Source: Streptosporangium saharense (GTDB lineage Bacteria; Actinomycetota; Actinomycetes; Streptosporangiales; Streptosporangiaceae). From it: DNA of 64,000 nt. Positions within the stretch are counted from its first letter, which is position 1. Each line of letters opens with the position of its first letter. The notes below the pieces were generated by a model that did no database searches, was not told the origin of the DNA, and was given only the letters and a program-made list of their open reading frames with translations. Location: NCBI RefSeq assembly GCF_014203715.1, contig NZ_JACHJP010000005.1, forward strand, positions 124,001 to 188,000. The letters are read 5' to 3'. This document shows, piece after piece, positions 19,080 to 23,910 of this stretch. Position numbers and translations under genes: made by a program.

Positions 19080-19904
19080 TCAAGCCAATGCCTGGGCGAG
19101 TTCCGGGAGGATCGTGCCCAGGGGGGCGTCGAGGGTGAGGGTGGCGTAGGGGTCGCCGCGGGTTTCGCCCTGGTTGATGATCACCACGGGGATGCCGAGC
19201 CTGGCGGCGTGCAGGACGAACCGGCGTCCGGAGAGCACCGTCAGCGACGACCCGAGGACCAGCAGCAGGCGCGCCCCCGCCACCAGGGCGTAGCTCGTGT
19301 GCACCCGGTCGGCGGGTACGGTCTCCCCGAAGAAGACGACGTCGGGCTTGAGCGTCCCCCCGTCGCACGCCAGGCACCCGACCACCCGGAACCCGCTGAC
19401 CTCGGCGTCCCCCAGTTCGACGTCACCGTCCGGGTTGATCGTGGTGGTCTTGAAGCCGAAGGAGGGGTTCGCCTGCCGCAGGCGGTGGTCCAGCTCCTCA
19501 CGCGGGGTCGAGTCGCCGCAGTCGAGGCAGACCACGTGGTGCAGGCTGCCGTGCAGCTCGACGACCTCGCGGGCACCGCCCGCCTGGTGCAGGCCGTCCA
19601 CGTTCTGCGTCACGATGCCGGTCACCAGACCCTGCCGCTGGAGGGCGGCGACCGCCTCATGACCGCTGTTCGGCGCGGCCCCGGTCATCGTCCGCCAGCC
19701 GACGTGGCTGCGGGCCCAGTAACGCCGCCTGGCCGCCTCGCTGCCGGTGAAGTCCTGGTAGGTCATGGGCGTGTGCCGGCTCAGGGAACCCCGCGGCCCC
19801 CGATAGTCGGGAATCCCCGACTCGGTGGACATCCCGGCCCCACTCAACACAACAACGCCGCCCCCGGCGACCAACCCCGCCAACCGGCTCCTGCCCTCGC
19901 TCAC
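19080..19904 (-). CDS. Sir2 family NAD-dependent protein deacetylase (sirtuin)
   Basis: The 274-residue protein carries the sirtuin signatures in order: GAGMSTESGIPDYRG near the N terminus, TQNVDGLHQ with the catalytic HGS further on, a zinc site of two cysteine pairs (CLDC and CLAC), and the NAD-binding VLGSSL. It would remove acetyl or acyl groups from lysines using NAD. GTG 19904 gives the usual N terminus; ATG 19949 in frame is possible but has no ribosome site. It is monocistronic; the 212-base spacer before the next gene shows no other feature I can name. Confidence 0.93.
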   Translation of the reverse strand: MSEGRSRLAGLVAGGGVVVLSGAGMSTESGIPDYRGPRGSLSRHTPMTYQDFTGSEAARRRYWARSHVGWRTMTGAAPNSGHEAVAALQRQGLVTGIVTQNVDGLHQAGGAREVVELHGSLHHVVCLDCGDSTPREELDHRLRQANPSFGFKTTTINPDGDVELGDAEVSGFRVVGCLACDGGTLKPDVVFFGETVPADRVHTSYALVAGARLLLVLGSSLTVLSGRRFVLHAARLGIPVVIINQGETRGDPYATLTLDAPLGTILPELAQALA

Positions 19905-20116
19905 CCTTCCATGGTGCCTCACCGTATGTGGCGGTCCGTGCGGCGGCATGGCCGATGGGTGGTTATCTCACTTTCGCGCGGTGGCTTACGAGAAAACGAC
20001 ATAAGGGGGCATAGGTGATTTTGTCATCAATAAAGTAATTACTCCTTGGTGACTGGCGGCGTGTTTATACCATCGGCCGGGCGGCTTTCCGGATTTGGCA
20101 GAACGATTGAGGCGCG

Positions 20117-20665
20117 ATGGTCTCCGGGCGGGATTGGGAGCGGAACACTCTGCAAGGTGACTTCGGGGAAGCATGGCTTGAGGTGGTCGCCGCGGGTAGT
20201 GGTCTTCTCCATGGGCGGCCGACCACCCTGGATCTCCAGAAATCGGACGTGCAGCTTTTTCTTCGCGGCGTTGAGCAGGGCACGTACAATCCCGCCGTTC
20301 TCGTGCAGGTCAAGACCACGGTGGACCTTCGTCGGTCGGGCGACGGTGATTACTACTATGACCTGGATATCGAGACCTATGACGTGCTGCGGCGAATCGA
20401 CCATTCGGTCAGGAGAATACTCGCCGTCATCGGTCTGTCGAAGAATGGCGAGAACGTGCGCCTCTACGACGAGGGAACCCTTCTGGTCGGTCGTGGAGCA
20501 TGGGTCTCACTGGAGGGCTTGTCGGCGTCCGACAACGCGAAGACCCAGGTCGTCTGCCTTCCAGCGGAGAACACTCTGGACCGCGACGGGCTTCTCATGA
20601 TGCTCAGGACCTACGGAGTCCGTAGATCCACCCCCGTGCCTGACGTCGACGCGTGGGAGTTGTAG
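20117..20665 (+). CDS. DUF4365 domain protein (nuclease-like)
   Basis: The 182-residue protein fits DUF4365: an opening NTLQGDFGEAWLEVVAAGSG helix, an acidic residue in DLQKSDVQLFL, then LVQVKTT on the next strand. The D...QxK arrangement resembles a PD-(D/E)XK nuclease core, although activity is not established for this protein. ATG 20117 follows TGAGG. Base composition is somewhat less GC-rich at the start than in flanking genes. The stop overlaps the start of the next gene by one base (TAGTG), so the two are translated together. Such pairs occur in bacterial accessory and defence-rich regions; a defence role here is inference. Confidence 0.72.
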   Translation: MVSGRDWERNTLQGDFGEAWLEVVAAGSGLLHGRPTTLDLQKSDVQLFLRGVEQGTYNPAVLVQVKTTVDLRRSGDGDYYYDLDIETYDVLRRIDHSVRRILAVIGLSKNGENVRLYDEGTLLVGRGAWVSLEGLSASDNAKTQVVCLPAENTLDRDGLLMMLRTYGVRRSTPVPDVDAWEL

Positions 20666-21843
20666 TGGGTGGACCAGGGGAAAGTCTTGTGGAAGAGGCG
20701 GCGGCGTTTCCCAGCCTGGCCGTCTTCGTCGCTTATCTGCGCGGTTCCGGGTGGACTCTCGAAGACGACGACGGCCGGACCACGTTGTGGCGGCCGGTGC
20801 GATCCGACATGGAAACGATGATGCGGATCGTTCTCCCGAACAGGCAGGAGGTCCGCGACTACGCCGAGCGGGCGGACGAGGCGTTGCGAACGCTCGCTTA
20901 CGTGGAGCGTCGCCTTCCCCAGGAAGTTTCCGCGGACATGAGCTTCGGTGGTGCGGACAATGTGTCGGTACGGCTGACGCCGGACGCTCCGGCCGGGGAG
21001 GCACCACTGTTCCTGGCGCATTCCGCGATATCGGCCCTGCGGAACTACGTGGTGGCCTCGGCCACGGCGCTGGACGCCGACTATCTCGTGCTGCCTCCCC
21101 GGCGTCCGCAACGGGCGGAGTCCTATGCGGCGCAGACCCGTATTTCCACCCAGCCGGGAAGTTTCGTGCTCTCCCTGGCCCTTCCACTGGTGGACGCGTA
21201 CACGGAAGGGGCGACCGCCTCCGCGGCCGGTCAGGAATCCCTGCTGGACATTCCTCCTCGGCCCTTCGGTCGTAAGGTGACGAGCAGAATGCTCGCCGCG
21301 GCTCAGCGGGCACGGCGTCTGGCGGAGGAAGTCGGCGAGGGGGACAAACCCCTTTCGGCTTTCGGGCAACTCGGTCAGGCTTCTCCGAATGCCACCGAGT
21401 TGGAAGCGCTGAGCCTTCTCGGAGGGCCGGATCACGATGTGTACCAGATCCGGTTCTCACAGTCTCCACTCGCTCCCGGATCCCATGAGCCCACGCGTCT
21501 GAAGATAACGCCGGGTCAGCAGAGAATCCTCGGGGAGGCCGCGGACTTTCTACGGACGAAACAACCGAGAGCCGGGATCACGGTCAGCGGCCTGGTCGTC
21601 CGCCTGTTCCGGGAGAGGAAGTACGGAAAAGGGGAAGTCGTCATCCAGGGAGTCGACGACGACACGGGTGAGACGAGAAGGTTCCGCGTCGAGCTTGACG
21701 AGTCCGACTACAACCTCGCGGTGCAGGCGCACAAGACCGGCCTTGAGGTCACCGCGACAGGTGATCTCGACGTTCGCGGGACACGCCGCTCCCTGCGTCG
21801 TCTGACCTGCTTCTCGGTACTGCCCGCCCTCGGAGACGACTAG
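20665..21843 (+). CDS. Unknown protein coupled to the DUF4365 gene
   Basis: This 392-residue soluble protein has no family I can name. The N-terminal 100 residues are acidic and rich in aromatic/charged residues (FVAYLRGSGWTLEDDDGRTTLW). The middle contains an alanine-rich helix near LAAAQRARRLAEEVGEGD. The last 110 residues look like a compact beta-rich domain (ITVSGLVVRLFRERKYGKGE, then YNLAVQAHKTGLEVTATGDL). GTG 20665 overlaps the previous stop by one base and follows GGGAG by five bases; a GTG 12 bases upstream is in frame but less likely. The tight coupling means it should act with the DUF4365 protein. A strong terminator follows. Confidence 0.65.
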   Translation: MGGPGESLVEEAAAFPSLAVFVAYLRGSGWTLEDDDGRTTLWRPVRSDMETMMRIVLPNRQEVRDYAERADEALRTLAYVERRLPQEVSADMSFGGADNVSVRLTPDAPAGEAPLFLAHSAISALRNYVVASATALDADYLVLPPRRPQRAESYAAQTRISTQPGSFVLSLALPLVDAYTEGATASAAGQESLLDIPPRPFGRKVTSRMLAAAQRARRLAEEVGEGDKPLSAFGQLGQASPNATELEALSLLGGPDHDVYQIRFSQSPLAPGSHEPTRLKITPGQQRILGEAADFLRTKQPRAGITVSGLVVRLFRERKYGKGEVVIQGVDDDTGETRRFRVELDESDYNLAVQAHKTGLEVTATGDLDVRGTRRSLRRLTCFSVLPALGDD

Positions 21844-21847
21844 AAGC

Positions 21848-21884
21848 CGAAGTGGCGGTCCCCACGGGGGTGACCGCCACTTCG
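21848..21884. terminator. Hairpin terminator
   Basis: CGAAGTGGCGGTC and GACCGCCACTTCG form a perfect 13-base stem around an 11-base loop, five bases after the stop of the two-gene unit and before the convergent ABC transporter operon. It serves both directions. Confidence 0.8.
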
Positions 21885-21918
21885 CATGATCGGGCCAGGC
21901 CGTACGGCCCGGCGGGGG

Positions 21919-23910
21919 TCAGGTGGATGATTCGGTGTCGGCGGGGACGAGGGCGCCGGTGAACTGGGCTGAGTAGAGGCGGTGGTAGGGGCCCTGGGTG
22001 GTGAGGAGTTGTTCGTGGGTGCCCTGTTCGACGATGCTGCCCTCCTCCATCACCAGGATCAGGTCTGCGTCGCGGATGGTGGACAGGCGGTGGGCGATGA
22101 CGAAGCTGGTGCGGTCGGAGCGCAGTGCGGCCATGGCGTGCTGGACCAGGACCTCGGTGCGGGTGTCCACGGCGCTGGTCGCCTCGTCGAGGATCAGCAG
22201 GGACGGGTTGGACAGGAAGGCGCGGGCGATGGTCAGCAGCTGGCGTTCACCGGCGCTGATGTTGCCTCCCTCTTCGTCGATCACGGTGTCGTAGCCGTCG
22301 GGCAGGGAGCGGACGAACCGGTCGACGTAGGTGGCCCGCGCGGCGGCCTGGATCTGCTCCTCGGTCGCCCCGGGGTTGCCGTAGGCGATGTTCTCCCTGA
22401 TGGTCCCGCCGAACAGCCAGGTGTCCTGGAGTACCATGCCGACGTGGGAGCGCAGGTCGTCGCGGCGCATCGCGGTGATGTCCACGCCGTCGAGGGTGAT
22501 GCGGCCCGCGTCCAGCTCGTAGAAGCGCATGACCAGGTTGACCAGGGTGGTCTTGCCGGCGCCGGTCGGGCCGACGATGGCGACCGTGTGCCCGGGTTCG
22601 GCCACCAGGGACAGGTCCTCGATGAGGGGACGGTCGGCCTCGTAGCGGAAGGAGACGTGCTCGAACTCGACGCGGCCCCGCCGTACGGTCGGGGGCACCG
22701 GGTTGGCCGGGTCGGGGGTCTGCTCCTCGGCGTCGAGCAGCTCGAAGACCCGTTCGGCCGAGGCCACCCCGGACTGCAGCAGGTTGGTCATGGAGGCGAC
22801 CTGGGTCAGCGGCTGGGTGAACTGCCGGGAGTACTGGATGAACGCCTGCACGTCGCCCAGGCTCATCGACCCCGTGGCGACCCGCAGGCCGCCGACGACC
22901 GCGATGGCGACGTAGTTGAGGTTCCCGACGAACATCATCGTCGGCATGATGATCCCGGAGATGAACTGGGCGCCGAAGCTGGCCTTGAACAGCTCCTCGT
23001 TCCTGGTGCGGAACACCTCCTCGACCTCGGGGCCACGGCCGAAGACCTTCACCAGCTCGTGGCCGGTGAACGCCTCCTCGATGTGGGCGTTCAGGGTGCC
23101 GGTGTGCGTCCACTGCGCGACGAACAGCTTCTGCGAGCGCTTCATGATCTGCCCGGTGAGGATCGTCGAGATCGGGATGGTCACCAGGGCGATCAGCGCG
23201 AGCAGCGGGGAGATCACGAACATCATTACCAGCACGCCGACCACGGTCAGCAGCGCGGTCAGCAACTGGCTCAACGTCTGCTGCAGGGTCTGGGAGACGT
23301 TGTCGATGTCGTTGGTGACCCGGCTGAGGAGTTCGCCGCGCGGCTGGCCGTCGAAGAAGCGCAGGGGGAGCCGGTTGAGCTTGTCCTCGACGTCGGAGCG
23401 CAGCCGGAACACCGTCCGCTGCACCACGTCGTTGAGCAGGTAGCCCTGCAGCCAGCCGAAGACCGACGCCGCGACGTAGAGAGCCAGGGCCCAGGACAGG
23501 ACCGTGGCCAGCGCGCCGAAGTCGATGCCCTGGCCGGGGACGACGTGCATCCCGGCGAGCATGGCGGCGAAGTTCTCGTTGCCCGAGGCGCGGGCGGCCT
23601 GGACCGCCTGTTCCGTGGTCGTCCCCGCGGGCAGTTGCCTGCCGATCACGCCGCTGAAGATCAGGTCGGTGGCCTGACCGAGGATCTTGGGACCGATGAC
23701 GCCGAAGACCACGCTGATCACGGCCAGGCCGATCACCGCGAAGAGCCGGGTGCGCTCCGGGGCGAGCCGCCGTACGAGACGGCGCATGGAGGGGCCGAAG
23801 TTCATCGACTTCTCGGTCGGCATCCCGCCGCCGAAGGGGTTGCGGCCGAAGGGGCTGCCGCCCGCGGGGGGACGGGGACGCGCGGGCGTCGCCTGTTGGT
23901 TGCCGCTCAT
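21919..23910 (-). CDS. ABC transporter, fused permease and ATPase (heterodimer subunit)
   Basis: The 663-residue protein has a Pro/Gly-rich cytoplasmic N terminus, six membrane helices (about residues 50-360) and an ATPase domain from about 410 to 640. Walker A is GPTGAGKTT, the signature is SAGERQLL, Walker B is [10 protein letters not shown], and the H-loop is IAHRLST. The signature begins SAG rather than SGG, a change often seen in one half of heterodimeric exporters with a degenerate site. ATG 23910 overlaps the end of the partner gene (ATGA). It is the third gene of the TetR operon. Its substrate is unknown, perhaps a drug or lipid. Confidence 0.92.

What the first reader, a model, noticed from the sequence alone, without database searches (positions are those of the whole stretch)
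20117..21843. Coupled DUF4365 nuclease-like gene and unknown partner, a candidate two-gene defence unit
The DUF4365 protein carries a D...QVKTT core that resembles PD-(D/E)XK nucleases. Its stop overlaps the start of a 392-residue partner that has a conserved-looking C-terminal domain and no known family. A strong terminator closes the unit. The accessory setting (gene remnants close by) fits defence genes.
Basis: partly seen in the sequence, partly recalled or inferred. Interest (0 to 1): 0.55.

Follow-up and report, generated by a model that had tools for sequence, protein, structure and literature searches.

The report
Two-gene nuclease defence candidate (PDC-M02)
Two overlapping bacterial genes make a likely DNA/RNA-cutting enzyme and a partner that probably senses invaders; the pair is real, widespread on mobile DNA and probably an anti-virus unit, but it is already catalogued as an untested candidate.

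Summary
The pair is real at 20117-21843. Gene A (182 aa) is DUF4365. Its stop shares one base with the GTG start of gene B (392 aa). Both hit PADLOC candidate system PDC-M02 over nearly full length (PDC-M02A 2e-86, PDC-M02B 2e-174), so "no known family" is wrong and "candidate defence unit" is already catalogued.

In 198 related genomes, 37 of 37 near-full-length B genes have A directly upstream, and 37 of 38 A matches have B; the other is a 26-residue fragment. The D…QxK residues match those that are catalytic in SPARDA DREN nucleases. B has two confidently modelled ends, an N-terminal domain and a C-terminal SSB-like OB fold. Cyanobacterial plasmids carry a compact B (~180 aa) holding only these two parts.

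In the genus the pair sits in a variable interval between a Sir2 gene and an ABC-transporter gene. Distant members lie beside Hma, HEC-01A, type IIG and DUF262 genes, on plasmids, and in Leptospira phage LE1 and an M. abscessus prophage.

Best model: B senses phage or foreign nucleic acid and assembles or licenses A, an Argonaute-free DREN nuclease. Nuclease activity, sensing and protection are inferred; nothing was tested at the bench.

The parts
20117..20665 (+). Gene A: 182-aa DUF4365 (DREN-type PD-(D/E)XK) nuclease, PDC-M02A; D39, D44, Q64, K66
   Evidence: PF14280 37.7 bits; PDC-M02A E 2.2e-86; QxK in 37 of 37 homologues; best Foldseek matches are SPARDA chains, E 3.7e-4
20665..21843 (+). 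Gene B: 392-aa partner, PDC-M02B (an in-frame GTG at 20653 is an alternative start)
   Evidence: PDC-M02B E 2.3e-174; 37 of 37 near-full-length B genes in relatives have A upstream
20704..20943 (+). B N-terminal domain (residues about 14-93), alpha-beta-beta-beta-alpha-alpha; 4 of B's 8 invariant columns lie here (L25, W30, P58, D65)
   Evidence: block means mostly pLDDT 61-86; invariants; kept in compact B
20944..21564 (+). B middle region (residues about 94-300), no confident fold, missing from compact cyanobacterial B
   Evidence: pLDDT < 50 for 94-300; compact B goes from model position about 72 to about 282-301
21565..21828 (+). B C-terminal OB fold (residues about 301-388)
   Evidence: block means pLDDT 74-91; OB-fold matches including S. 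coelicolor SSB Z 8.9 and SilF Z 10.1
21849..21883 (.). Hairpin between the converging B and ABC-transporter genes, probable bidirectional terminator without T-tract
   Evidence: z -3.56; not reported by the intrinsic-terminator scan
20028..20116 (+). Upstream segment shared (78% identity) only with the pair-bearing relative G008; probable promoter/leader
   Evidence: blastn of flanks against 17 site loci

Best explanation
This is a two-gene anti-mobile-element defence unit of the PDC-M02 type. Gene A is a DREN (DUF4365, PD-(D/E)XK) metal-dependent nuclease. Gene B is a regulator/sensor made of an N-terminal domain, a variable middle and a C-terminal ssDNA-binding-like OB fold. Proposed mechanism: A alone is inert or restrained; B recognises a phage or plasmid replication product (most simply single-stranded DNA/RNA or a protein bound to it) through its OB fold and brings A molecules together, switching on collateral or invader-directed cleavage, as filament formation does for DREN in SPARDA. 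Shown here: obligate pairing, conserved catalytic residues, OB fold prediction, mobility, defence-gene neighbours of distant members. Inferred: nuclease activity, the B-A complex, the ligand, phage protection, and whether the outcome is cell death or clearance.
For: PADLOC matches of both genes over nearly full length. Pairing 37/37 and 37/38 in 198 genomes, plus Proteobacteria, Clostridia, Spirochaetota and Cyanobacteriota plasmids. A/B distance correlation r 0.966 over 37 loci, permutation maximum 0.23. Q64 and K66 in 37/37 and D39 in 37/37; these match D41/Q60/K62 of the NbaSPARDA DREN (passages of PMC12205087) and Q62/K64 of TmuRE, whose double mutant was made as the inactive form (passages of PMC10810196). 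The A model's best structural matches are SPARDA chains. OB fold in B. Neighbours HmaA/HmaB, HEC-01A, type IIG-like enzymes, DUF262 and Abi genes. Phage and prophage carriage. In loci that keep an intact B, A is lost or broken in five (L004, L040, L044, L134, L135), whereas no intact A without B was seen in 198 genomes.
Against: No bench data for any PDC-M02 pair was found. The A model is weak (mean pLDDT 54.3), and profile searches by sequence find no PDB relative, SPARDA included. The middle of B is unmodelled. An OB fold does not prove nucleic-acid binding: toxin B-subunits and SilF are also matched. The window's own clade is not shown to be in a defence island. PADLOC neighbour enrichment was not counted per locus. 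Five loci keep B with A missing or broken, so the unit decays.
Confidence: 0.68

Rival explanations
1. Toxin-antitoxin or plasmid/prophage maintenance module: A is a toxic nuclease and B neutralises it; the pair stabilises mobile elements rather than fighting phages.
For: Carried on many small mobilizable or conjugative plasmids next to integrases and ParA genes and in temperate phages. Gene A is lost while B stays, and no intact A without B was seen. Short, overlapping genes.
Against: Toxin-first order with a partner twice as large; chromosomal copies next to Hma, HEC-01A and type IIG genes; [quoted passage not shown] Nuclease toxins also serve abortive infection, so this overlaps the best explanation.
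Confidence: 0.15
2. Restriction-like system: B recognises a sequence or modified base in foreign DNA and A cuts it directly, sparing self.
For: PD-(D/E)XK nuclease next to a DNA-binding-like partner; type IIG-like genes beside L086 and L092.
Against: No methyltransferase next to the window pair; no SRA or other known modification-reader domain found in B.
Confidence: 0.09
3. DNA repair or recombination accessory pair (nuclease plus SSB-like protein).
For: OB fold resembles SSB, PriB and RecO domains; Streptomyces-like genomes carry the pair near a thrS-like gene.
Against: Patchy distribution (5 of 16 congeners with any B match, 9 of 396 phylum-wide genomes), lower third-position GC than its neighbours (0.74 vs 0.89-0.92) and mobile-element carriage do not fit a housekeeping repair role.
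Confidence: 0.05

Closest known systems
PDC-M02 (PADLOC-DB 2.0.0 phage defence candidate, genes PDC-M02A and PDC-M02B)
   Same: Both proteins match the models over nearly full length; same two genes, adjacent
   Different: Nothing that excludes membership. The catalogue gives only names; the mechanism, variable site, compact form and phage carriage described here are additions
SPARDA (short prokaryotic Argonaute with DREN/DUF4365-APAZ)
   Same: DUF4365 nuclease with the same D, Q, K residues; two-gene operon with the nuclease gene first (TmuRE-Ago)
   Different: No Argonaute or APAZ found; the nuclease is a separate 182-aa protein; the partner has an OB fold; no guide RNA component seen
Single-stranded DNA-binding proteins and other OB-fold proteins (SSB, PriB, RecO N-terminal domain)
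   Same: C-terminal fold of B (Z 7-9)
   Different: No sequence relation detected; OB fold fused to a distinct N-terminal domain and paired with a nuclease

Membership tests
PDC-M02 (PADLOC) | Protein matching PDC-M02A | tested here: met
   PDLC04281 E 2.2e-86, residues 1-181 of 182
PDC-M02 (PADLOC) | Adjacent protein matching PDC-M02B | tested here: met
   PDLC04299 E 2.3e-174, residues 14-391 of 392; overlapping genes
PDC-M02 (PADLOC) | Demonstrated antiviral activity | not testable with these tools
   No paper in the library names PDC-M02 (related spellings); PMC12988326 calls PDCs unvalidated (passages)
DUF4365 (PF14280) | Score above the curated cut-off | tested here: met
   37.7 vs 24.3 bits
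DREN / PD-(D/E)XK nuclease | Catalytic D, Q, K (D41, Q60, K62 in NbaSPARDA) | tested here: met
   D44 in 36/37 (the exception L045 is shifted in the alignment), Q64 37/37, K66 37/37, D39 37/37; correspondence to the SPARDA numbering is by motif and spacing, not by a sequence alignment to SPARDA
[quoted passage not shown]
   Foldseek top ten rows are SPARDA chains (best E 3.7e-4, nine of the ten with prob 0.99-1.00, one 0.80), but the model has mean pLDDT 54.3
DREN / PD-(D/E)XK nuclease | Nucleic-acid cleavage | not testable with these tools
   needs biochemistry
SPARDA | Short pAgo encoded in the operon and APAZ domain fused to the nuclease | tested here: not met
   A is only 182 aa; B has no Pfam, NCBIfam or PDB-sequence match and no PADLOC match other than PDC-M02B among the 25 rows shown; flanking genes are a Sir2 and an ABC transporter
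OB-fold nucleic-acid-binding protein | OB fold (five-stranded barrel with helix) | tested here: met
   predicted residues 301-388, block means pLDDT 74-91, many OB-fold matches; fold only, not function
Restriction-modification system | Cognate methyltransferase next to the nuclease | tested here: not met
   adjacent genes in the window are Sir2 and an ABC transporter; type IIG-like neighbours occur only in some distant members
Type II toxin-antitoxin | Free A toxic, B neutralising | not testable with these tools
   needs expression assays

The most novel reading that the evidence does not exclude
PDC-M02 is an Argonaute-free counterpart of SPARDA. A stand-alone DREN nuclease is switched on by a modular partner in which an N-terminal domain holds the nuclease and an OB fold senses single-stranded phage or plasmid nucleic acid. 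A compact version of about 1 kb (a 164-167-aa nuclease plus a 175-180-aa NTD-OB protein) on cyanobacterial plasmids would be the minimal form, and temperate phages would carry the system for inter-phage exclusion.
Probability: 0.33. Interest if true: 0.72.

Novelty: new member of a known kind. Interest (0 to 1): 0.45.

Why it matters
SPARDA's DREN nuclease needs a guide RNA, Argonaute and filament formation to switch on. A system with a similar nuclease core but no Argonaute would show a second way to gate it and would ask what is sensed without a guide. PDC-M02 is widespread (Actinomycetota, Pseudomonadota, Bacillota, Spirochaetota, Cyanobacteriota, Bdellovibrionota, temperate phages), and no test of it was found in the papers searched. 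The compact cyanobacterial pair is small enough for direct biochemistry and structure work.

Tried and rejected
Rejected: membership of SPARDA (no Argonaute/APAZ); the Sir2 gene at 19080-19949 as a third defence gene (it has a match in 16 of 16 congeners, so it is core). 'No known family' for B. The idea that B pairs with different effectors: the loci lacking A were inspected and no alternative effector was seen next to B in L040, L044, L134 or L135, while L004 keeps a truncated A.

Led nowhere: four viral-contig scans with B alignments found no relative; direct tblastn of the window B against phages found none, and only divergent B queries reached phages. Sequence searches of A and B against the PDB found nothing useful. 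The B model is poor from 94 to 300, so no fold search covers that part, and the N-terminal domain is not tested for fold relatives (warns of this). In the VIA-align rows almost only the OB region was matched, so absence of other folds means nothing.

Neighbour test limits: 120 ORFs around 20 pair loci vs 118 of 120 ORFs from 20 control loci (two ORFs of 2460 and 1906 aa dropped for the size limit) gave 261 vs 59 PADLOC models at E <= 1e-10. These are counts of models, not of proteins or loci; large model sets such as GajB and PD-T4-6 inflate them; some ORFs come from a simple caller and may be spurious. The 20 proteins scanned one by one were hand-picked from the 120. The controls also hold defence genes (Wadjet-like JetA/JetC, Csx1). 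No significance is claimed.

Row drops: for nine duplicate loci and loci with A under about 120 or B under about 300 model positions were left out. For 'near-full-length B' means at least 280 of 383 model positions (37 of 44 B matches). The A13 profile used was itself built from A proteins that sit next to B, which favours the 37/38 figure.

Full report
What is there. ORF A runs 20117-20665 (+, ATG, 182 aa) and ORF B runs 20665-21843 (+, GTG, 392 aa; an in-frame GTG at 20653 would give 396 aa). A's TAG and B's GTG share one base. The pair lies between a Sir2-family gene on the minus strand (19080-19949; PF02146), 167 bp upstream, and a minus-strand ABC transporter gene (21919-23910), 75 bp downstream. 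A hairpin (z -3.56, 0 of 200 shuffles as good) separates the converging genes. It has no T-tract and the intrinsic-terminator scan does not list it. Third-position GC of the pair is 0.74 for both genes, against 0.89 and 0.92 for the flanking genes, which points to foreign origin (locus L075).

Known families. A is DUF4365 (PF14280, 37.7 bits, cut-off 24.3), and one PF14280 match is found in the whole genome. B has no Pfam or NCBIfam match. Both are covered by PADLOC-DB 2.0.0 models: PDC-M02A (E 2.2e-86) and PDC-M02B (E 2.3e-174) over almost the whole proteins. PDC means phage defence candidate (PMC11514479, passages). PMC12988326 (passages) says the PDCs come from a guilt-by-embedding screen, cites a 2024 bioRxiv preprint for it (10.1101/2024.01.29.577857, not held and not read), and calls the PDCs unvalidated. 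No paper in the library contains 'PDC-M02', and related spellings gave nothing on it (listing only). Papers naming DUF4365 number 10 (listing); those on defence in that list concern short Argonautes.

Pairing. With profiles of A and B, 198 related genomes hold 44 B matches. All 37 near-full-length ones have A directly upstream on the same strand, and 37 of 38 A matches have B, the last being a 26-residue fragment. Pairwise distances of A and B over 37 loci correlate at r = 0.966; the largest of 2000 permutations was 0.23. The B family is patchy: 33 of 198 relatives, 9 of 396 phylum-wide genomes, 8 of them from one genus besides the window's own, and 5 of 16 congeners.

Catalytic residues. Over 37 loci, Q64 and K66 are present in 37, D39 in 37 and D44 in 36, the remaining one being shifted in the alignment. 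In NbaSPARDA the DREN (DUF4365) catalytic residues are D41, Q60 and K62 (PMC12205087, passages). In TmuRE the predicted active-site residues are Q62 and K64, and the double mutant was used as the inactive form (PMC10810196, passages). The spacing agrees (D-20-Q-2-K in A, D-19-Q-2-K in NbaSPARDA). The A model is weak (mean pLDDT 54.3), yet its ten best PDB matches are all SPARDA chains (best E 3.7e-4; nine with prob 0.99-1.00, one 0.80). A sequence profile of A finds no PDB chain.

Partner B. The model is confident in residues about 14-93 and 301-388 and not between (mean pLDDT 52.3). The C-terminal part is an OB fold, with matches to SilF (Z 10.1), S. coelicolor SSB (Z 8.9), PriB, RPA and RecO. 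A fold match is not proof of function, and toxin B-subunits share the fold. Eight columns are invariant over 26 diverse B proteins, four of them in the N-terminal domain and three in the OB fold. tblastn with a compact B finds 20 plasmid records, 17 of which hold a match over at least 80% of it; all 17 are cyanobacterial, down to 41% identity. Seven were fetched and all seven show the N-terminal domain joined directly to the OB fold, with the middle absent. Of these seven, five have an intact A with QxK, one has a frameshifted A (L135) and one has no A (L134). This independently supports the two-domain reading of the model.

Location in the genus. In 16 genomes of the genus the Sir2 gene and the ABC gene lie within 60 kb of each other in 14, and the interval ranges from 0.7 kb (G003) to 57 kb (G004). 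The pair is in this interval in four (G000, G005 with a truncated A, G008, G014), and G012 has a B remnant just beyond the Sir2 gene. Flanking similarity stops at or near the coding ends except in pair-bearing G008, which shares 89 bp upstream of A and part of the hairpin. The rest of the cargo looks metabolic or regulatory, for example an ATP-grasp plus PCMT-like pair in G008. It is therefore a variable interval and not shown to be a defence island.

Defence context elsewhere. Among ORFs around 20 pair loci, 261 PADLOC models match at E <= 1e-10, against 59 around 20 control loci (limits are given under Tried and rejected). Twenty hand-picked neighbours from seven loci show, beside the pair: HmaA and HmaB (L084), HEC-01A (L082), a kinase, UvrD-like helicase and restriction-enzyme match (L085) and type IIG/DrmMI-like enzymes (L086, L092); L083 and L087 gave none. 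An Entomospira plasmid carries the pair beside DUF262 genes, with HicA and Abi genes nearby.

Mobility. Pairs occur on plasmids of Gluconobacter, Tistrella, Methylobacterium, Phaeobacter, Pusillibacter, Entomospira and Nostocales. In Pigmentibacter an IS6 element has cut A. Genes 1-2 of M. abscessus prophage prophi102-2 and two genes of Leptospira phage LE1 are also PDC-M02 pairs by PADLOC models.

Mechanism. The best reading is a gated nuclease. [quoted passage not shown] filament formation makes it tetrameric and active (PMC12205087 passages). PDC-M02 keeps a DREN-like core but replaces Argonaute/APAZ with B. The simplest role for B is to hold A through one domain and sense single-stranded nucleic acid through the OB fold. 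Five loci keep an intact B with A lost or broken (L004, L040, L044, L134, L135), and no intact A without B was found in the 198 genomes. That fits A being the costly effector, and does not separate defence from toxin-antitoxin. All functional steps are inferred.

Verdict. What is added here is the obligate-pairing test, the SPARDA-based mechanism, the OB fold, the compact form, the site history and the phage carriage.

Noticed in passing
L127 4001-4543, L131 3001-3543, L132 3001-3540, L133 5001-5528, L134 4001-4543, L135 4001-4543, L136 3001-3528: Compact PDC-M02B (about 175-180 aa) on Nostocales plasmids: N-terminal domain joined to OB fold, usually with an intact DUF4365 gene overlapping it by 4 bases, often near an integrase.
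   Followed up: yes
L122 1638-3149 (+): B's N-terminal domain fused to a ChlI/ComM-like domain, directly after a large P-loop-like gene; the module is used outside PDC-M02.
   Followed up: partly
L123 2555-3112 (-): A 185-aa protein carrying B's N-terminal domain at its C-terminus, between genes that look like a nucleotidyltransferase and a metallophosphatase (judged by eye, not scanned); no DUF4365 seen beside it.
   Followed up: partly
window 19949-21919: Interval between a core Sir2 gene and an ABC-transporter gene varies from 0.7 to 57 kb in 14 of 16 congeners: a variable insertion site in this genus.
   Followed up: partly
L066 2617-4718 (-): PCMT-like methyltransferase next to a MvdD-type ATP-grasp protein in the same interval of G008; possibly an ATP-grasp peptide cluster.
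   Followed up: no
L055, L089, L090, L095: In several genomes of one other genus of the class (probably Streptomyces) the pair sits beside a threonyl-tRNA-synthetase-like gene, suggesting a fixed chromosomal position there.
   Followed up: no
L135 3434-4001; L044 9612-9944; L124 582-914: Gene A decayed three different ways (frameshift, IS6 insertion, loss of the N-terminal half) while B stays intact.
   Followed up: partly
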